Assembly: GCF_000959365.1 (NCBI RefSeq) | Contig: NZ_CP009556.1 | Span: forward strand, 992,001 to 1,056,000 | Reading direction: 5' to 3' | Source: Burkholderia oklahomensis C6786 | Lineage (GTDB): Bacteria; Pseudomonadota; Gammaproteobacteria; Burkholderiales; Burkholderiaceae | Length of the DNA stretch: 64,000 bases | In this document: piece by piece, positions 12,907 through 27,491 of the stretch | Position numbering within the stretch: the first letter of the stretch is position 1 | Layout of the letters: every line of letters starts with the position of its first letter | Position numbers and translations under genes: made by a program | The notes under the pieces: generated by a model | The model's database searches: none | What the model saw: only the letters and a program-made list of their open reading frames with translations | What the model was told of the DNA's origin: nothing

Positions 12907-12921
12907 ATATCCAAGAGGTAT
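12907..12921. promoter_or_regulatory. LysR (BenM-type) operator ATAT-N7-GTAT
   Basis: This is a one-base variant of the ATAC-N7-GTAT consensus known for BenM/CatM. It lies 21 bp upstream of the benA -35 box. The spacer CCAAGAG contains the Shine-Dalgarno of the divergent LysR gene, so binding would both activate benA and repress benM. A second, weaker dyad, TAGT-N8-ACTA, is at 12826-12841, within the benA leader. Confidence 0.6.
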
Positions 12922-12925
12922 GAAG

Positions 12926-13840
12926 ATGGAACTGCGGCATCTACGGTACTTCGTCGCGGTCGCGGAGGAGCAGAATTTCACGCGCGCGGCGGAGCGCCTG
13001 CACATCGCGCAGCCGCCGCTGAGCCGCCAGATCCAGCAGCTCGAGGACGCGCTCGGCGTGATGCTGTTCGAGCGGCACGCGCGGCCGCTGAAGATGACCG
13101 ACGCCGGACGCTTCTTCTATTCGCACGCGGTGCAGCTGCTCGCGCAGACGGCCGAGCTCGAATCGATGACGAAGCGTGTCGGCAAGATCGAGCGCTCGCT
13201 GTCGGTGGGCTTCGTCGGCTCGACGCTGTACGGGATGCTGCCCCGGATCATCCGCCGCTTTCGCGACGAATACGGCGAGGTCGAGCTGAGCCTGCACGAA
13301 ATGTCGACGATGGATCAGATCAAGGCGCTGAAGGAAGGGCGAATCGACGTCGGCTTCGGCCGCATTCGTCATGAGGATCCGAGCGTGCGGCGCATCGTGC
13401 TGCGCGAGGAGCGGATGATCGTCGCGCTGCCGGTCGGGCATCCGCTCGAAGCGGCGAAGCCGGTGCTGTCGCTGCACGATCTCGTCGGCGAGACGCTGAT
13501 CATCTTTCCGAAGACGCCGCGGCCGAGCTATGCGGACCAGGTGCTCGCCGCGTTCCACGATCGCGCGCTGAAACCGCAGAAGATCTACGAGACGCGCGAG
13601 CTGCAGATCGCGCTCGGGCTCGTCGCGGCGGGCGAGGGCGTGTCGGTCGTGCCGCGCAGCGTGCACGGGCTCAAGCGCGACGACGTGAGCTACAAGGAGC
13701 TCGACGATCCGAATCTCGTGTCGCCGATCATCATGAGCACGCGGATGCTCGACGAATCGGAGGACATTCGTGCGATGCTCGCGCTGATTTATCGGTTGTA
13801 CGACGAATTCAACATGGATTATCAGCCGCCGCACGAATGA
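12926..13840 (+). CDS. benM: LysR-type regulator of benzoate genes (BenM/CatM-like)
   Basis: A 304-residue LysR regulator with an N-terminal winged helix (MELRHLRYFVAVAEEQNFTR, then RAAERLHIAQPPLSRQIQQL) and an effector domain. The effector domain shows GFVGSTLYGMLPRIIRRF, the cis,cis-muconate/benzoate-responsive type. It is divergent from benABCD. I chose the second ATG because AAGAGG lies 7 bp before it; the ATG at 12920 is too close to the ribosome site. The protein is closely similar to the catR product later in the window, so cross-regulation is likely. It probably activates benA with benzoate and/or muconate. Confidence 0.85.
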   Translation: MELRHLRYFVAVAEEQNFTRAAERLHIAQPPLSRQIQQLEDALGVMLFERHARPLKMTDAGRFFYSHAVQLLAQTAELESMTKRVGKIERSLSVGFVGSTLYGMLPRIIRRFRDEYGEVELSLHEMSTMDQIKALKEGRIDVGFGRIRHEDPSVRRIVLREERMIVALPVGHPLEAAKPVLSLHDLVGETLIIFPKTPRPSYADQVLAAFHDRALKPQKIYETRELQIALGLVAAGEGVSVVPRSVHGLKRDDVSYKELDDPNLVSPIIMSTRMLDESEDIRAMLALIYRLYDEFNMDYQPPHE

Positions 13841-16439: not shown

Positions 16440-18593
<2,154 letters not shown>

Positions 18594-18627
18594 GCGAGGC
18601 GTGCGTCCGCCCATGCTCGCGGGCGCG

Positions 18628-19746
18628 TCATGCGGTTCGCGTCAGCTCGATGAGCGCACGCGTCAGCGCCCCGTCGGGCGCGGCCAGTTCGTCGAGCACG
18701 GAGAAATGCGAGCAGCCGGCGATCGGCAGATAGCGCGTGCGAGGATCGCATTGCGCGCACGCAAGCGCGTACTCGCGCGAATGGCGGACGAGCTCGGGCA
18801 GCTCGTCCGCACCGACGGCGACCGTCATCGGCGCGCCTCTGCCCGTCGCGTCGATCGGACTGAAGCGTTCGATCTCGTCGGGCGTGAGGTGCAGCTTGTC
18901 GTCGAGCCAGCAGAGGGCGATCGGCTCCAGATCGACGAGCGCGCTGATCGGCAGCGCCCACCCGACGGCGGGGTGGGCCCGATATAGCGCGGTGAGATGC
19001 CCGCCCGCGGAATGGCCGCTCAGGCACAACGGGCCGCGTGTGCGCGGATCGTCGCGGAGCCGGTCGAGCAGGCGGCCGATCTCGGCGACGATCTGCGTCA
19101 TCGTCGCGTCGGGCGCGAGCGTGTATTCGGCAAGCACGACGTCGAAGCCGTGCGCGAGCGGCCCTTGCGCGACGAACGCGAAATCCTCTTTCGTGCAGTT
19201 CTGCCAGTAGCCGCCGTGAATGAATACGAAGGTCGGCGCATCGTTCCGGTCGCATGCGATGCGGTCGAAGCGCTGACGCGCGCCGTCGCCGTAGGCGACG
19301 TCGCGTTCGCACGGATGCGCGGCGTACAGGGCCGCGCTGCGCGCCCGGCAGCGCGCGTAGATGGCGGGGAAATCGGGCACGGCTTGCGTGTTGTTGTACG
19401 CCGCGTCGAGCGCCGCACGGTCCATGCCGCGATAGACAGCCGGGCGGCCGGTGCATTCGCCGCTGTCGTCGCGGATCGACGACGGATGCCGGCACAGCGC
19501 GCGCACTTCGATCCGCATGTACGGGAAGAGCGGCAGCCGGCTCAGCACGTCGTGCAGATGCGCGGGGCTCTCGACGTCGAAGACGCCGACGTTCGCGCGG
19601 CGGCCCGCGACGCGCCACAGATGCCGCCACACGCCTTCGCGCTGCAGCCGTTGCGCCATCTCCCTCTCCTCCGATTTCAGGCTCGCCGCTTCGGCGGGAC
19701 TCATGTCGGGCGGAAGATCGATGTTCATCTCGACGTGAAACAGCAT
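18628..19746 (-). CDS. Muconolactone isomerase - alpha/beta hydrolase fusion
   Basis: One 372-residue frame with two complete domains. Residues 1-94 are a muconolactone delta-isomerase (CatC), nearly the same as the stand-alone copy (MAQRLQREGVWRHLWR, LPLFPYMRIEV, LCRHPSSI). Residues 105-372 are an alpha/beta hydrolase of the kynurenine-formamidase-like type, with the oxyanion motif HGGYW (177-181), GHSAG with Ser246, Asp314 and His347. The hinge is only about ten residues, and the usual CatC stop is absent. AGGAG precedes the ATG by 7 bp. The isomerase yields 3-oxoadipate enol-lactone, so the hydrolase could open that lactone (replacing PcaD/CatD). It could instead act as an arylformamidase feeding anthranilate. 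A catR-type promoter and operator lie upstream. Confidence 0.85.
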   Translation of the reverse strand: MLFHVEMNIDLPPDMSPAEAASLKSEEREMAQRLQREGVWRHLWRVAGRRANVGVFDVESPAHLHDVLSRLPLFPYMRIEVRALCRHPSSIRDDSGECTGRPAVYRGMDRAALDAAYNNTQAVPDFPAIYARCRARSAALYAAHPCERDVAYGDGARQRFDRIACDRNDAPTFVFIHGGYWQNCTKEDFAFVAQGPLAHGFDVVLAEYTLAPDATMTQIVAEIGRLLDRLRDDPRTRGPLCLSGHSAGGHLTALYRAHPAVGWALPISALVDLEPIALCWLDDKLHLTPDEIERFSPIDATGRGAPMTVAVGADELPELVRHSREYALACAQCDPRTRYLPIAGCSHFSVLDELAAPDGALTRALIELTRTA

Positions 19747-19836
19747 GTGGTTCTCCTGAAGAAATGATCCGCGAGAACGCGGAAGCCATTCGTGAGCGCG
19801 CGCATCGACGCGCGTGGAGCTTGCCGGCAAGCGCGC

Positions 19837-19867
19837 ATCGTAGGAACCGAAGCGTCGCGGTGTCCAA
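19837..19867 (-). promoter_or_regulatory. Promoter of the CatC-hydrolase fusion gene (TTGGAC-N19-TACGAT)
   Basis: On the minus strand, TTGGAC (19867-19862) and TACGAT (19842-19837) are spaced by 19 bp, the same geometry as the benA and catB promoters. The predicted leader is about 85 bases. The long spacer implies activator dependence. Confidence 0.55.
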
Positions 19868-19887
19868 TATTTTCTCTGACGCTTTTC

Positions 19888-19902
19888 ATGCATTCGAGGT
19901 AT
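19888..19902. promoter_or_regulatory. Orphan CatR/BenM-type operator ATGC-N7-GTAT
   Basis: This is one base off the ATAC-N7-GTAT consensus and lies 20 bp upstream of the TTGGAC box, exactly as at catB. The flanking sequence TTCGAGGTATGC is the same as at the catR start, including that gene's GAGG ribosome site, but no LysR gene follows here. Confidence 0.6.
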
Positions 19903-20167
19903 GCGCCGCATTCCGTCCGAGCGCGCATCGTCCGTCGACGCCGTCGACGCGGGCGACGCGCGCACTCGCATCCGGGGCATCGGAAATGGCCCGTGCGTCG
20001 GCCGAAATTTTGTGTGACAACGTGTCGCACTGTCATTTTCAGCAAAGATGATTTGTTTCATTGACGGATTTTCATCCAGTTCGCCGGCCGTATGATGCGA
20101 GCGCTTCCGCGAATCGGCCGTCCGCCGGTTCGCTCGGACTGCGATACATCTGATGCTGGCAAACGTG
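19903..20167. other. Intergenic region upstream of cyoA
   Basis: No credible gene. The short plus-strand frame beginning at 19901 does not resemble a LysR protein, so no regulator remains. TTGACG at 20061 and TATGAT at 20091 are individually good promoter hexamers, but they are 24 bp apart and cannot form one promoter. The region is AT-richer between 20005 and 20080, where the cyo promoter probably lies. Confidence 0.35.
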
Positions 20168-21055
20168 ATGAATAGAACGGCTTTCAAAAGCTTGTCGTTG
20201 TTCGGGGCGGTCGGTGCGCTCGCCTCGCTGTCCGGCTGCGGCCTCGACGTGCTCGATCCGAAAGGCGCGGTCGGCGCCGCGGAGAAGTCGCTGATCGCGA
20301 CGTCAACGTGGGCGATGCTGATCGTCGTCGTGCCGGTGATCTTCCTGACGCTGCTGTTCGCGTGGCGCTACCGCGCGTCGAACCGCAACGCGACCTACGC
20401 GCCGAAATGGGCGCACTCGACCGCGATCGAGATCGTCATCTGGACCGTCCCGTCGCTGATCATCCTGTTCCTCGGCATTCTCACGTGGAAGACCACGCAC
20501 GAGCTCGATCCGTATCGGCCGCTCGAATCGTCGGTGAAGCCGATCGACGTCGAGGTCGTCGCGCTCGACTGGAAGTGGCTGTTCGTCTATCCGGACCTCG
20601 GCATTGCTTCGGTGAACCAACTTGCGGTGCCGGTCGGCACGCCGATCAATTTCCGGATCACGTCCGATTCGGTGATGAATTCGTTCTTCATTCCGCAGCT
20701 CGGCACGCAGGTCTACGCGATGGCCGGCATGCAGACGCGCCTGCACCTGATCGCCGACGAGCCGGGCGACTTCGCCGGGCTGTCGGCGAACTACAGCGGC
20801 CGCGGCTTCTCCGACATGAAGTTCCGCACGCTCGCGACGCCGCGCGACGCGTTCGACGCGTGGGTCGCGAAGGTGCGCGCGTCGCCGGAGCGGCTCGACA
20901 TGACCGCGTACAGGCAGCTCGCGCAGCCTAGCGAGAAGCAGCCGGTGCGCTACTACTCGACGGTCGATCCCCGGCTGTTCAACAACATCATCGCGAAGTA
21001 CAACGACGGCCACGTCCTGGACCTGACGGACGCCGCTTGTCGGACGAAGAGGTAA
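20168..21055 (+). CDS. cyoA: Cytochrome bo3 ubiquinol oxidase subunit II
   Basis: A lipoprotein subunit of about 295 residues of the proton-pumping quinol oxidase. [13 protein letters not shown] followed by LASLSGC is a lipoprotein signal, with the lipidated cysteine at residue 24. Two transmembrane helices follow ([17 protein letters not shown] and [17 protein letters not shown]), then a periplasmic cupredoxin domain ([17 protein letters not shown]). The CuA ligands of cytochrome c oxidases are absent, as expected for a quinol oxidase. The frame can also start at an ATG 15 bp upstream; neither start has a strong ribosome site. First gene of cyoABCD. Confidence 0.92.
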
Positions 21056-21057
21056 GC

Positions 21058-23064
21058 ATGTTCGGTAAATTGACGCTTTCGGCGATCCCGTTCGATCAGC
21101 CGATCATCATGGGCGCGGCCGCGTTCATGGGGCTTGTCGTGCTCGCGATTCTGGGCGCGCTGACCTATACGAAGCGCTGGAAATGGCTGTGGGCCGAGTG
21201 GCTGACGACCGTCGACCACAAGAAGCTCGGCGTGATGTACATCATCGTCGCGCTGATCATGCTGCTGCGCGGCTTCGCGGATGCCGTGATGATGCGCCTG
21301 CAGCTCGCGCTCGCGTACAACGGCCCCGGCTATCTGCCGCCGCATCACTACGACCAGATCTTCACCGCGCATGGCGTCATCATGATCTTCTTCATGGCGA
21401 TGACGTTCATGATCGGCCTGATGAACGTCATCGTGCCGCTGCAGATCGGCGCGCGCGACGTCGCGTTCCCTTTCATCAATTCGCTGAGCTTCTGGATGAC
21501 GGCGGTCTCGGCGATCCTGATCAACATCTCGCTCGTGGTCGGCGAATTCGCGCAGACGGGCTGGCTCGCGTATCCGCCGCTGTCGGAGCTGCAGTTCAGT
21601 CCGGGCGTCGGCGTCGACTACTATCTGTGGGCGCTGCAGATATCCGGCGTCGGCACGCTGCTGACGGGCGTCAACTTCTTCGCGACGATCATCCGGATGC
21701 GCGCGCCCGGCATGACGCTGATGAAGATGCCGGTGTTCACGTGGACCGCGCTCTGCACGAACGTGCTGATCATGGCGTCATTCCCGATCCTGACGGTCAC
21801 GCTCGCGCTGCTCGGCCTCGACCGCTATCTCGGCATGCACTTCTTCACGAACGATGCCGGCGGCAATGCGATGCTGTATCTGAACCTGATCTGGGCATGG
21901 GGCCATCCGGAGGTTTACATCCTGATCCTGCCCGCGTTCGGGATCTTCTCGGAGGTGGTCGCGACGTACGCGAAGAAGCCGCTCTTCGGCTACAAGACGA
22001 TGGTCTATGCGAGCTGCGCGATCATGGTGCTGTCGTTCCTCGTCTGGCTGCATCACTTCTTCACGATGGGCTCGGGCGCGAACGTCAACGCGTTTTTCGG
22101 GATTATGACGATGATCATCGCGATCCCGACCGGCGTGAAGGTGTTCAACTGGCTGTTCACGATCTACCGCGGCCGGCTCGAGTTCTCGACGCCGATCCTG
22201 TGGACGATCGGCTTCATGGTGACGTTCACGCTCGGCGGGATGACGGGCGTGATGATGGCGATTCCCGGCGCGGACTTCGTGCTGCACAACAGCCTGTTCC
22301 TGATCGCGCACTTCCACAACGTGATCATCGGCGGCGTGCTGTTCGGTTATCTCGCGGGCTTCAACTACTGGTTCCCGAAGGTGTTCGGCTTCAAGCTGAA
22401 CGAGAAGCTCGGCAAGGCCGCGTTCTGGTTCTGGCAGATCGGCTTCTACGTCGCGTTCGTGCCGCTCTACGTGCTCGGCTTCATGGGGATGACGCGGCGT
22501 CTGAACCATTACGACAATCCGGCATGGCATCCGTGGCTCGTCGTCGCCGCGTTCGGCGCCGCGCTGATCGCGATCGGCATCGCATGCCAGCTGCTGCAGC
22601 TCGTCGTCAGCCTGCGCGATCGCAAGCTGCCCGAAAATCGCGACTTCACGGGCGATCCGTGGGGCGGCCGCACGCTCGAATGGGCGACGTCGTCGCCGCC
22701 GCCCGCATACAACTTCGCGACGATCCCGGCCGTGCACGCGCTCGACGAGTTCGCGTACCGCAAGGAGCGCGGCCTCGGCATCGGCAAGCAAGCGGAGTAT
22801 CGCGACATCCACATGCCGTCGAACACGAGCGCGGGCCTCTTCGTCGGCGTGTTCAGCCTGGTGCTCGGCTTCGCGGCGGTATGGCACATCTGGTGGCTCG
22901 CGATCGTCGGGCTCGCCGGCATCGTCGTCACGGTGATCGCGTATAGCGCGAGCGACGGCGACGGCTATTTCATCCCGGCCGACACCGTGCGCAAGATCGA
23001 GGAAAAACGCGGCGGCGCGCGCTTCGTCGCACGGCCGGCGGAAGTCGAACTGGAGGCAAACTGA
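21058..23064 (+). CDS. cyoB: Cytochrome bo3 ubiquinol oxidase subunit I
   Basis: A 668-residue haem-copper oxidase subunit with about 15 transmembrane helices, carrying low-spin haem b and the haem o3-CuB centre. Family motifs are intact: [19 protein letters not shown] (CuB His and cross-linked Tyr), [10 protein letters not shown], and [10 protein letters not shown] with haem ligands. The ATG lies 2 bp after the cyoA stop, with GAAGAGG upstream. It overlaps cyoC by one base. Confidence 0.95.
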
Positions 23065-23672
23065 TGTCGTATCAATCCGTGAGCGCCGCTCATCATCAGG
23101 CTGCGCACGACCATCCGCCGTCGCATTCGGTGTTCGGTTTCTGGCTGTACCTGATGACCGACTGCGTGATCTTCGCCGCGCTGTTCGCCGTGTTCGCGGT
23201 GATGGCGCATCAGTTCGCGGGCGGCCCGACGGCCGTCGACCTGTTCGACATCCCGGGCGTCGCGATCGAGACCGCGCTGCTGCTCGTCAGCAGCATCACG
23301 TACGGCTTCGCGATGATCGGCGCGCAGCGCGGCCGCCGAAGCGCGCTGCTCGGCTGGCTCGCGGTGACGTTCGTGCTCGGCGCGGCGTTCCTCGGCCTCG
23401 AGCTGCGCGAGTTCTCGCACATGATCGCCGAAGGCGCGGGGCCGCAGCGCAGCGCGTTCCTGTCGTCGTTCTTCACGCTCGTCGGCACGCACGGGCTGCA
23501 CGTCGCGATCGGCCTCTTGTGGATGGCCGTGCTCGCGTTTCAGGCGACGCGCCGCCCGGCGCTGACCGAGCGCGACATTCGCCGGCTCACCTGCCTGAGT
23601 CTTTTCTGGCACTTCCTCGACATCGTCTGGATCTGCGTCTTTACCTTTGTCTATCTCGCGAGCGTGATCTAA
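23064..23672 (+). CDS. cyoC: Cytochrome bo3 ubiquinol oxidase subunit III
   Basis: A 202-residue membrane protein with five hydrophobic helices. It contains FWLYLMTDCVIFAALFAVF and FTLVGTHGLHVAIGLLWM, with the typical subunit III end LFWHFLDIVWICVFTFVYL. It stabilises the oxidase complex. Its ATG overlaps the cyoB stop (TGATG), implying coupled translation. Confidence 0.94.
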   Translation: MSYQSVSAAHHQAAHDHPPSHSVFGFWLYLMTDCVIFAALFAVFAVMAHQFAGGPTAVDLFDIPGVAIETALLLVSSITYGFAMIGAQRGRRSALLGWLAVTFVLGAAFLGLELREFSHMIAEGAGPQRSAFLSSFFTLVGTHGLHVAIGLLWMAVLAFQATRRPALTERDIRRLTCLSLFWHFLDIVWICVFTFVYLASVI

Positions 23673-24005
23673 ATGACCGATACGCATCTCTCTCACGACG
23701 GCGAAGCGCACGGCACCGTGGGCGGCTACGTCGCCGGATTCATCCTGTCGGTGCTGTTGACGGCGGCGTCGTTCGGGCTCGTGCTGAGCGGCGCGCTGTC
23801 GTCGCACGCGTCGCTGATCGCGCTCGCGGCGCTTGCGTTCGTGCAGATCGTCGTGCACCTCGTCTATTTCCTGCACATGAACGCATCGTCCGGCCAGCGC
23901 TGGAACGTGATGGCGTTCAGCTACACGGTGCTGACGGCGGCGATCCTGATCGTCGGCACGCTTTGGGTCATGCACAACGTCGGCATGAACATGATGTCGC
24001 GTTGA
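23673..24005 (+). CDS. cyoD: Cytochrome bo3 ubiquinol oxidase subunit IV
   Basis: A 110-residue membrane protein with three helices, containing LAALAFVQIVVHLVYFLHMN, the COX4/CyoD signature. The ATG directly follows the cyoC stop. It assists CuB assembly in E. coli. No cyoE (haem o synthase) follows, so that function must be encoded elsewhere. Confidence 0.93.
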   Translation: MTDTHLSHDGEAHGTVGGYVAGFILSVLLTAASFGLVLSGALSSHASLIALAALAFVQIVVHLVYFLHMNASSGQRWNVMAFSYTVLTAAILIVGTLWVMHNVGMNMMSR

Positions 24006-24016
24006 GCGTGAATCTC

Positions 24017-24082
24017 GCATGCGCCGGGTAGGCCCCGGCGCATGCGCAAAAGCGCGGGCGCACGGGGAACATCCGTGCGCCC
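24017..24082 (+). terminator. Double hairpin terminator after cyoABCD
   Basis: A first perfect 12-bp stem pairs GCATGCGCCGGG (24017-24028) with CCCGGCGCATGC (24034-24045). A second stem pairs GGGCGCACGG (24056-24065) with CCGTGCGCCC (24073-24082), followed by GTTTCGTTT. Both lie between the ends of two convergent genes and can serve both strands. Confidence 0.75.
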
Positions 24083-24115
24083 GTTTCGTTTCGCGCGGCC
24101 GACGCGATGCGGCGC

Positions 24116-24406
24116 TCAGCGGTCGTCGTCGTGGATCGACGACGGATGCCGGCACAGCGCGCGCACTTCGATCCGCATGTACGGAAAGAGCGGGAGCTGG
24201 CTCAGCACGTCGTGCAGATGCGCGGGACTCTCGACGTCGAAGACGCTGACGTTCGCGTAGCGGCCCGCGATGCGCCACAGGTGCCGCCACACGCCTTCGC
24301 GCTGCAGCCGCTGCGCCATCTCCTTTTCTTCCGACTTCAGGCTCGCGGCCTTGACCGGATCGATGTCGACGGGCAGCTCGACGGTCATTTCCACATGAAA
24401 CAGCAT
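24116..24406 (-). CDS. catC: Muconolactone delta-isomerase
   Basis: A 96-residue enzyme that converts muconolactone to 3-oxoadipate enol-lactone; it assembles as a decamer in other species. It begins MLFHVEMTVELPVDIDPVKA and ends LCRHPSSIHDDDR, the normal CatC length. It follows catA by 37 bp as the last gene of a catB-catA-catC operon. In the core about 10 of 190 nucleotides differ from the isomerase part of the fusion gene 4.4 kb away, so the two arose by recent duplication or gene conversion. Confidence 0.95.
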   Translation of the reverse strand: MLFHVEMTVELPVDIDPVKAASLKSEEKEMAQRLQREGVWRHLWRIAGRYANVSVFDVESPAHLHDVLSQLPLFPYMRIEVRALCRHPSSIHDDDR

Positions 24407-24443
24407 GGCTTGATCCTTGTGATGAACGTTGTGGCGATGCCGT

Positions 24444-25346
24444 TCACGCCTGCGCGCGAACGCGCTCGACTTCGCTCGCCGGCACGTTGCCGCGCGCATG
24501 CGTCAGTGAGAAGTCGAAGTCGATCAGCGCGAATTGGCCATCGATTCCGTAAGGCTTGCCTTCCGCGCCTTCGGCCTGCTTGATCTTCGGAATCAGGCCT
24601 TCGCGCGTCGCGAACGCGAAGTCGTCCCAGATGTGCGGGTCGCCTTCGATGTTGATCTGCGTCGTCAGTTTGCGATGACCGGGCGCCGACACGAAGAAAT
24701 GGATGTGCGCGGGACGGTGGCCGTGGCGGCCGAGCTGGTCGAGCAACTGCTCGGTCTTGCTGCCGGGCGGCACGCTGTAGCCGACGGGCAGCACGCTGCG
24801 GAAGCTGTAGCGGCCTTCGGCGTCGGTGCGGATCGAGCGGCGCAGATTGAACGCCGGCTGCGACGGATCGAAGTACGAATAATTGCCGAGATGGTTCGCA
24901 TGCCATACTTCGACGAGCGCGTTCGCGAGCGGCTTGCCGTCTTCGCCGAGCACGCGGCCGCGCATCACGAGCGTCTGGCCGGGATCCGTGCCGTCGTCGA
25001 GACGCGCATGGCCGACCGATTCCGGCGCGCCGGCGACGTACAGCGGCCCTTCGATCGTGCGCGGCGTGCCGCCTTGCAGGCCCGCCTTCGCTTCCGCTTC
25101 GTCCATCCGCACGTCGAGGAAGCGCTCGAAGCCGAGGCCGGCCGCGATCAGGCCGAATTCCTTGCCCGCTTCGTTCAGGTAGTTGAGCGCGGTCCAGAAT
25201 TCGCTCGGCTGCACGTCGAAATCCTCGATCGTGTGGAACAGATCCTTCACGATCCGGTTGACGATCGCGCGTACGCGCGGGTTGCCGGGCTGCGTCGCGG
25301 CGTCGTCGAACGACTTCAGCAGGGCGTCGATGGCTTCCTTGTTCAT
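24444..25346 (-). CDS. catA: Catechol 1,2-dioxygenase
   Basis: A 300-residue intradiol dioxygenase that cleaves catechol to cis,cis-muconate with non-haem Fe(III). Residues 1-100 are the helical linker domain. The catalytic domain contains the Tyr ligands (LGNYSYFDPS, VLPVGYSVP) and the His ligands in GRHGHRPAHIHFFVSAPGH. The ATG has GGAGA 6 bp upstream; an in-frame TTG four codons earlier is less likely. It lies 34 bp from catB. Confidence 0.95.
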   Translation of the reverse strand: MNKEAIDALLKSFDDAATQPGNPRVRAIVNRIVKDLFHTIEDFDVQPSEFWTALNYLNEAGKEFGLIAAGLGFERFLDVRMDEAEAKAGLQGGTPRTIEGPLYVAGAPESVGHARLDDGTDPGQTLVMRGRVLGEDGKPLANALVEVWHANHLGNYSYFDPSQPAFNLRRSIRTDAEGRYSFRSVLPVGYSVPPGSKTEQLLDQLGRHGHRPAHIHFFVSAPGHRKLTTQINIEGDPHIWDDFAFATREGLIPKIKQAEGAEGKPYGIDGQFALIDFDFSLTHARGNVPASEVERVRAQA

Positions 25347-26514: not shown

Positions 26515-26535
26515 CGGAATCCTCCTGTCGCACAC

Positions 26536-26566
26536 ATGGTAGAAACAAACGCGCGACGGCGTCCAA
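26536..26566 (-). promoter_or_regulatory. catB promoter (TTGGAC-N19-TACCAT)
   Basis: On the minus strand, TTGGAC (26566-26561) and TACCAT (26541-26536) are separated by 19 bp. Transcription would start near 26529, leaving a leader of about 15 bases with the ribosome site. Same geometry as the benA and fusion-gene promoters. Confidence 0.6.
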
Positions 26567-26586
26567 CACCCTTTCCGACTACTTCC

Positions 26587-26601
26587 ATACTTTCGAGGTA
26601 T
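26587..26601. promoter_or_regulatory. CatR operator ATAC-N7-GTAT
   Basis: A perfect match to the BenM/CatM consensus, 20 bp upstream of the catB -35 box. The spacer TTTCGAG plus the following base contains the catR ribosome site (GAGG), and the catR ATG is 2 bp past the right half-site. CatR binding should therefore repress its own gene while activating catB. Confidence 0.7.
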
Positions 26602-26603
26602 GC

Positions 26604-27491
26604 ATGGAACTGCGTCAGCTCCGGTATTTCATCGCGGTGGCCGAAGAGATGAACATCACGCGCGCCGCGCAACGGCTGCACATGACGCAGCCGCCGCTCA
26701 GCCGCCAGCTGCAGCTGATCGAGGACGAGATCGGCCTGCCGCTCTTCGAGCGCGGCGCGCGGCCGCTGAAGCTGACCGACGCGGGGCGGGTGTTCTACGC
26801 GCAGGCGCGGCGCGTGCTCGAGCAGGCCGACGAGCTCGCGCCGCTCACGCGCCGGCTCGCGCAGGCGGCCGAGCGGATCGTGATCGGCTTCGTGCCGTCG
26901 ACGCTGTACGGCGCGCTGCCCGACGTGATCCGCGCGTTCCGCGAGGCCGCGCCGGCCGTCGAGCTGTCGCTGATCGAAATGTTCACGCTCGAGCAGCTCG
27001 GCGCGCTGAAAGGCGGCCGGATCGACATCGGCTTCGGCCGGCTGCGCTTCGACGACGACCAGCTCGTGCGCGAGGTGCTCGTCGAAGAGCGGCTGATCGC
27101 GGCGCTGCCGGACGGGCATCCGCTCGCCGCGCCCGACGCGCCGCTCTCGCTCGCGGAGATCGCCGGGCAGACGCTGATCGTTTACCCGAGTACGCCGCGG
27201 CCGAGCTTTGCCGATCAGCAATTGTCCGCGCTGCGCGACGGCGGTCTCGCGCCTGCGGCGGTGCACGAGGTGCGCGAGCTGCAGACGGCGCTCGGGCTCG
27301 TCGCCGCGCAGGTCGGGGTGTCGCTCGTGCCGGAGAGCGTCGATGGGGTGAGAGTGAAGGGCGTCGTCTACCGGCCGCTGCCGGAGCCCGTCGCGACGTC
27401 GCCGATCATCCTGAGCCGGCGGCTGCACGACGAAAGCCGCGCGACCAAGCTGTTCTGCTCGCTCGCGCGCGAGCTGATGGCGGGCCGCTGA
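26604..27491 (+). CDS. catR: LysR-type regulator CatR of the catechol branch
   Basis: A 295-residue LysR protein beginning MELRQLRYFIAVAEEMNITR with an intact winged helix (LHMTQPPLSRQLQLIEDE). Its effector domain resembles BenM/CatM/CatR (IGFVPSTLYGALPDVIRAF). It is divergent from catBAC and very similar in sequence to the benM product, so the two regulators are paralogues. The probable inducer is cis,cis-muconate. Confidence 0.9.
   Translation: MELRQLRYFIAVAEEMNITRAAQRLHMTQPPLSRQLQLIEDEIGLPLFERGARPLKLTDAGRVFYAQARRVLEQADELAPLTRRLAQAAERIVIGFVPSTLYGALPDVIRAFREAAPAVELSLIEMFTLEQLGALKGGRIDIGFGRLRFDDDQLVREVLVEERLIAALPDGHPLAAPDAPLSLAEIAGQTLIVYPSTPRPSFADQQLSALRDGGLAPAAVHEVRELQTALGLVAAQVGVSLVPESVDGVRVKGVVYRPLPEPVATSPIILSRRLHDESRATKLFCSLARELMAGR

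What the first reader, a model, noticed from the sequence alone, without database searches (positions are those of the whole stretch)
18628..19746. CatC fused in frame to an alpha/beta hydrolase
One 372-residue frame contains an entire muconolactone isomerase (1-94) and an entire serine hydrolase (Ser246, Asp314, His347; HGGYW) with a hinge of about ten residues. I do not know a described protein of this architecture. PcaL (PcaD-PcaC fusion) is an analogous consecutive-step fusion in the protocatechuate branch. Since CatC makes the enol-lactone, the natural hypothesis is that the hydrolase opens it, although it looks more like kynurenine formamidase than PcaD. The alternative is an arylformamidase feeding the anthranilate branch encoded nearby.
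Basis: partly seen in the sequence, partly recalled or inferred. Interest (0 to 1): 0.85.

Follow-up and report, generated by a model that had tools for sequence, protein, structure and literature searches.

The report
Decayed CatC piece fused to esterase
A copied, probably inactive piece of a catechol-breakdown gene, with its promoter, sits in frame in front of an ordinary esterase in one bacterial lineage; it is a real but very rare and local gene fusion rather than a new two-step pathway enzyme.

Summary
The fusion is real: one 372-codon minus-strand gene (19746-18628) joins a CatC (muconolactone isomerase) domain to a complete serine hydrolase. One separately assembled relative, P0002, shares it; it is the only CatC-hydrolase protein among 47 word-sharing candidates from 5.8 billion proteins. 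No listed match in 65 genomes of the genus spans both parts.
The two-step-enzyme idea fails. The CatC part has lost Tyr50 and Ser54, each present in 120 of 120 CatC relatives compared; P0002 has also lost Trp44. An intact catC lies 4.7 kb away. The hydrolase breaks 0 of 70 strongly conserved columns, is not PcaD, and its best solved match is the broad esterase LIP1; its acid is Glu315, not Asp314.
The gene lies in a 1.4 kb insert absent at this site from the three genomes matching the region best. Upstream is a diverged copy of the catR-catB promoter (0 of 1000 shuffles score as high).
Best reading: a duplicated promoter plus catC became joined to an esterase gene, leaving a decayed CatC leader. 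Substrate unknown; an amidase role stays open.

The parts
18628..19746 (-). fusion gene, 372 aa: CatC-derived domain plus LIP1-type alpha/beta hydrolase
   Evidence: separately assembled copy P0002
19465..19746 (-). CatC-derived segment (residues 1-94), diverged copy of a catC; Tyr50->Arg, Ser54->Gly
   Evidence: 88% DNA repeat D1 with the intact catC; residue conservation; codons 1-29 75% and codons 30-94 94% identical to the local catC
19441..19464 (-). junction (residues 95-102); predicted flexible
   Evidence: catC DNA homology ends and hydrolase DNA homology begins around it; model
18631..19440 (-). hydrolase domain (residues 103-372), HGGYW motif, triad Ser246-Glu315-His347
   Evidence: LIP1 triad from abstract of PMC9065602
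19753..19757 (-). AGGAG, likely ribosome-binding site of the fusion gene
   Evidence: read from the sequence
19831..19917 (-). diverged copy of the catR-catB promoter region (58 of 87 positions), with an imperfect CatR/CatM-like dyad at 19888-19902
   Evidence: consensus ATAC-N7-GTAT from one passage of PMC6628147
18610..20012 (.). insert between the FMN oxidoreductase gene and the cytochrome oxidase genes
   Evidence: absent at this site from G001, G018, G036
24116..24406 (-). intact stand-alone catC (96 aa)
26530..26616 (-). catR-catB promoter region that the fusion's upstream DNA resembles

Best explanation
A partial copy of the cat operon (its CatR-type promoter and catC, without catB and catA) became joined in frame to a LIP1-type esterase gene between an oxidoreductase gene and the cytochrome oxidase genes. 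The copied promoter and the catC start signals now express the esterase, which works through Ser246-Glu315-His347. The CatC-derived leader has lost isomerase residues and is probably an inactive passenger, at most an assembly or solubility element. Shown: architecture, relatedness of promoter and catC segment to the cat operon, absence from the nearest genomes held, lost CatC residues, intact hydrolase residues. Inferred: loss of isomerase activity, muconate/CatR control, esterase chemistry, order of events.
For: CatC part: Tyr50->Arg and Ser54->Gly at columns conserved in 120 of 120 relatives; 4 of 41 columns of at least 97% conservation broken, while 120 genuine CatCs, left out one at a time, break 0, 1 or 2 (90, 25, 5 of 120). 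Y50 and S54 are also kept in 5-chloromuconolactone dehalogenase. P0002 adds Trp44->Gly and Met77->Thr and falls below the TIGR03221 cut-off (117.7 vs 130.6). P0002 vs window: 4 of 94 CatC residues differ, 3 of 8 junction, 2 of 270 hydrolase (Fisher CatC vs hydrolase p=0.04). Hydrolase: 0 of 70 conserved columns broken in either copy; best solved match LIP1, TM 0.90 on the target, 57% identity. Upstream DNA aligns to the catR-catB region with score 29, shuffle maximum 17, 0 of 1000. Insert absent from G001, G018, G036, which have about 476, 266 and 581 bp between the matches there. The CatC segment falls in the clade of window, G001, G018, G036 catC (99/97) on a branch of 0.13, in a tree of 22 rows. 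Of the in-frame starts, the Met at codon 108, near where stand-alone relatives begin, has no ribosome-binding-like sequence.
Against: dN/dS of the CatC segment against the local catC is 0.29; ten comparisons of the local catC with other catCs give 0.10-0.39, so it has not simply been drifting, and the fold may still be, or lately have been, under selection. The window's CatC part still passes the TIGR03221 cut-off. The 120 comparison CatCs are the best-scoring of 5120 hits and so near kin; one distant CatC-like fusion, P0006, also lacks Tyr50. The ATG at codon 30 has a GGAGGAG-like stretch upstream, so a shorter product is possible. The dyad in the promoter copy is imperfect. The window's own genome and P0002's DNA could not be read. 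No search was made for catB or catA remnants, so the deletion is inferred. The p value for uneven change is marginal.
Confidence: 0.66

Rival explanations
1. Bifunctional catabolic enzyme, PcaL-like: the CatC domain isomerises muconolactone and the hydrolase opens the 3-oxoadipate enol-lactone.
For: Two full-length domains in frame; located 4.7 kb from catBAC; the window's CatC part still passes the TIGR03221 cut-off and its dN/dS is not raised.
Against: Tyr50 and Ser54 lost; hydrolase is LIP1-type, not PcaD; 5 of 5 relatives tested have a separate PcaD; intact catC nearby.
Confidence: 0.05
2. N-acyl- or N-formyl-aromatic amidase (for example on N-formylkynurenine or N-formylanthranilate) feeding the anthranilate-catechol route, with the CatC part as mere leader; a cat-type promoter would make this metabolically sensible.
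For: Serratia sp. Ag1 has a stand-alone relative at the end of a one-strand run catB-catC-catA-antA-antB-antC-aromatic transporter-hydrolase; the window encodes AndAc, AndR, BenA and BenC nearby; fold similarity to kynurenine formamidase.
Against: catC near the hydrolase in 1 of 82 loci held (at most 61 distinct places; most seen with only 1.5 kb flanks); 5 of 5 relatives have a zinc KynB; formamidase identity 22-23%, LIP1 57%.
Confidence: 0.2
3. The degenerate CatC domain is kept because its ring-forming fold assembles the hydrolase into an oligomer (structural exaptation).
For: dN/dS not raised; the model keeps a CatC-like fold with a flexible linker; 37 of 41 conserved CatC columns retained; CatC forms rings of ten (recalled; 1mli has ten chains).
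Against: P0002 loses further conserved residues, W44G and M77T; only two known copies.
Confidence: 0.15

Closest known systems
LIP1 of Pseudomonas chlororaphis PA23 (PDB 9n8r; PMC9065602, abstract and passages seen)
   Same: Hydrolase domain: 57% identity and TM 0.90 on the target; same Ser-His-Glu triad.
   Different: LIP1 is a stand-alone intracellular esterase; here there is a CatC-derived N-terminal part and a cat-like promoter.
CatC, muconolactone Delta-isomerase (PDB 1mli; TIGR03221)
   Same: Residues 1-94 are a full-length copy, nearest to catC of this clade.
   Different: Tyr50, Ser54 and Asp95 changed; no stop; fused.
PcaL, the PcaD-PcaC fusion (recalled; the term occurs in papers, listing only)
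   Same: A beta-ketoadipate-pathway domain joined to an alpha/beta hydrolase.
   Different: PcaL joins PcaC to a true PcaD (recalled); here the hydrolase is not PcaD and the pathway domain looks inactive.
Kynurenine formamidase of Drosophila (PDB 4e11, 4e14, 4e15)
   Same: Alpha/beta hydrolase fold; serine-dependent (passages of PMC4243253).
   Different: 22-23% identity; bacterial KynB is a different, binuclear zinc enzyme (title and passages of PMC4243253).
CatC-CatA fusions P0003, P0004, P0007, P0008
   Same: CatC and another domain in one protein.
   Different: The partner is catechol 1,2-dioxygenase, from the neighbouring cat gene; parts of some look frame-disturbed.

Membership tests
Muconolactone isomerase (CatC) | sequence model TIGR03221 above cut-off | tested here: met
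   135.0 vs 130.6 bits for the window; not met by P0002, 117.7
Muconolactone isomerase (CatC) | residues invariant in near relatives | tested here: not met
   Tyr50 and Ser54 lost; 120 of 120 relatives have them
Muconolactone isomerase (CatC) | isomerase activity and ring assembly | not testable with these tools
   needs purified protein
LIP1-type alpha/beta hydrolase | conserved family columns and Ser-Glu-His triad | tested here: met
   0 of 70 conserved columns broken; Ser246, Glu315, His347 in 119 of 119 relatives
PcaD enol-lactone hydrolase | TIGR02427 match | tested here: not met
   not among NCBIfam hits up to E 0.001
Bacterial kynurenine formamidase KynB | TIGR03035 match | tested here: not met
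   not among NCBIfam hits up to E 0.001
Eukaryote-type serine kynurenine formamidase | N-formylkynurenine hydrolysis | not testable with these tools
   fold similarity only, 22-23% identity
CatR/CatM-controlled cat promoter | ATAC-N7-GTAT dyad | tested here: inconclusive
   ATGC-N7-GTAT at 19888; full dyad at the cat promoter, 26587

The most novel reading that the evidence does not exclude
A muconate-responsive promoter and a decayed enzyme ring have been captured together: the CatC fold, no longer an isomerase, serves as an oligomerising scaffold for an esterase or amidase that is switched on with aromatic catabolism.
Probability: 0.12. Interest if true: 0.55.

Novelty: new variant of a known kind. 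Interest (0 to 1): 0.33.

Why it matters
The domain pair is very rare (one other sequence found) and looks like the birth of a gene by capture of a promoter and start site, caught while the captured enzyme domain decays. It also shows that an in-frame pair of pathway domains is not evidence of a bifunctional enzyme: checking the invariant residues changes the verdict. If the CatC ring proved to be retained as a scaffold, it would be a clean case of structural exaptation.

Tried and rejected
PcaL-like bifunctional enzyme: set aside on lost CatC residues and a non-PcaD hydrolase. Assembly artefact: set aside because P0002 carries the same frame with 9 differences in 372. Very recent copy of the local catC: set aside; codons 1-29 are 75% identical to it and 68-75% to the 20 other catCs compared. 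A shared ancestral second catC next to the oxidoreductase gene: G041 has a frameshifted copy (98% over codons 41-94 to its own catC) and G050 a 3' fragment (91% to the catC of G062, best of 13 compared), but they look like separate events. Start at Met108: no ribosome-binding-like sequence; a start at Met30 is not excluded. RNA families in 18400-24600: none at gathering scores. Repeats in 18590-20060: only short pairs, none at the two ends of the insert. Hydrolase neighbourhoods: 20 proteins picked from 117 mechanical frames; no recurring partner, and several picked frames were probably spurious. A lead not closed: the Burkholderia alba hydrolase P0012 and CatC P0137 come from contigs of the same length (147055), likewise P0062 and P0138 (13568), which suggests that the two genes lie on one contig in some species; distance unknown. 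Literature: the listings showed me no paper on a CatC-hydrolase fusion, but I saw only titles and abstract starts of the listed ones (for, 12 of 291; for, 8 of 17; for, 6 of 13); (the code 9N8R) and one search found no paper; some searches were on formamidases, CatM/BenM and LIP1. Passages of PMC6449761 were seen and not used.

Full report
Observation. On the minus strand, 19746-18628 is a single 372-codon frame. Residues 1-90 match muconolactone isomerase (Pfam 123.2 bits; TIGR03221 135.0 bits, cut-off 130.6) and residues from about 103 on match alpha/beta hydrolases. The start has AGGAG upstream; the ATG at codon 30 also has a purine-rich stretch before it, so a shorter product is possible. 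Chance frames of this length are common here, so the evidence is the homology and a separately assembled copy: P0002, 372 aa, differs at 9 of 372 residues.

How rare it is. A search with residues 1-100 scored 47 candidates of permitted length that share exact words with the query; 9 had a CatC domain at E up to 0.001. P0002 alone joins it to this hydrolase; the others pair CatC with catechol dioxygenase, muconate cycloisomerase or other domains. Relatives sharing no words, or outside 0.55-1.75 times the length, would be missed. In 65 genomes of the genus no listed match spans both parts; 44 of 65 have a separate hydrolase at 56-67% identity (weaker rows of both tables were not listed). The organism is a Burkholderia relative: its CatC is 90-92% identical to three sequences labelled B. 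pseudomallei, but its species was not identified and its assembly is not held.

The isomerase part. Against 120 CatC relatives (the best of 5120 hits, so biased to near kin), Tyr50->Arg and Ser54->Gly hit columns conserved in 120 of 120; V9I and D95S hit columns of at least 97%. Genuine CatCs, left out one at a time, break 0, 1 or 2 such columns (90, 25, 5 of 120); the fusion breaks 4 and P0002 6. Tyr50 and Ser54 are also kept in 1mli and in 5-chloromuconolactone dehalogenase. A more distant CatC-like fusion, P0006, has Trp at position 50, so the column is not universal. I found no paper passage on the roles of Tyr50 and Ser54; that their loss kills activity is inference. Against my reading: dN/dS versus the local catC is 0.29, while ten comparisons of the local catC with others give 0.10-0.39.

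The hydrolase part. 0 of 70 columns conserved in at least 97% of 119 relatives are broken in the fusion or in P0002. Ser246, Glu315 and His347 are present in 119 of 119; Asp at 314 in 16. The offsets to LIP1 Ser152, Glu221 and His253 are all 94. LIP1 hydrolyses p-nitrophenyl esters and polyesters (abstract and passages of PMC9065602). A model of the whole protein has mean confidence 87.1, below 50 over residues 85-104; best fold match 9n8r, then 2pbl, then Drosophila kynurenine formamidase.

Origin. Between the FMN oxidoreductase gene and the cytochrome oxidase genes the window has about 1.4 kb (18610-20012) where G001, G018 and G036, the genomes matching this region best, have about 476, 266 and 581 bp without it. 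The catC segment is 88% identical to the intact catC 4.66 kb away, falls in the same clade (99/97) on a branch of 0.13 in a tree of 22 rows, and is a mosaic: 75% over codons 1-29, 94% over codons 30-94. Upstream, 87 bases align without gaps to the catR-catB region at 58 of 87; score 29 against a shuffle maximum of 17 (0 of 1000), while the ben promoter region gives 10 (922 of 1000 shuffles reach it). The dyad there is ATGC-N7-GTAT, the cat one ATAC-N7-GTAT, which is the CatM/BenM site 1 form given in one figure legend of PMC6628147.

Function. 5 of 5 relatives examined have PcaD and zinc-type KynB above cut-off, so neither proposed activity is missing in those genomes; the window's own genome could not be checked. 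Of 82 hydrolase loci held (at most 61 distinct places; 60 loci with 1.5 kb flanks, 22 with up to 10 kb), 1 has catC nearby: Serratia sp. Ag1, where the order on one strand is catB, catC, catA, antA, antB, antC, an aromatic-acid transporter, hydrolase. That keeps an amidase role in anthranilate catabolism open at low probability.

Verdict. A real, lineage-restricted fusion, best read as capture of a cat promoter and catC start in front of a LIP1-type esterase, with the CatC domain probably inactive. The architecture is new to the databases searched; the parts are known.

Noticed in passing
P0003, P0004, P0007, P0008 (database proteins): CatC and catechol 1,2-dioxygenase CatA in one protein; P0004 stands for 15 member sequences.
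   Followed up: no
L065:4553-4770 (G041): A second, frameshifted catC without its first 18 codons, 98% identical over codons 41-94 to that genome's own catC, about 2.4 kb from the FMN oxidoreductase gene.
   Followed up: partly
L066:2836-2961 (G050): A 3' fragment of catC (codons 53-94) about 5 kb from the FMN oxidoreductase gene, most like the catC of G062 among 13 compared.
   Followed up: partly
L068:3994-5468 (G018): About 1.5 kb separates catA from catC, where the window has 37 bases.
   Followed up: no
L042:2924-10804 (Serratia sp. Ag1): A one-strand run catBCA-antABC-aromatic transporter-hydrolase, the only such setting seen for this hydrolase.
   Followed up: partly
window 12920-13840 and 26600-27491: Two similar LysR-type regulators beside the ben and cat genes (72-78% DNA identity over five stretches).
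   Followed up: no
P0006 (database protein): CatC-like domain joined to a SnoaL-like domain (Pfam accessions; the name is recalled), with many conserved CatC residues changed.
   Followed up: no
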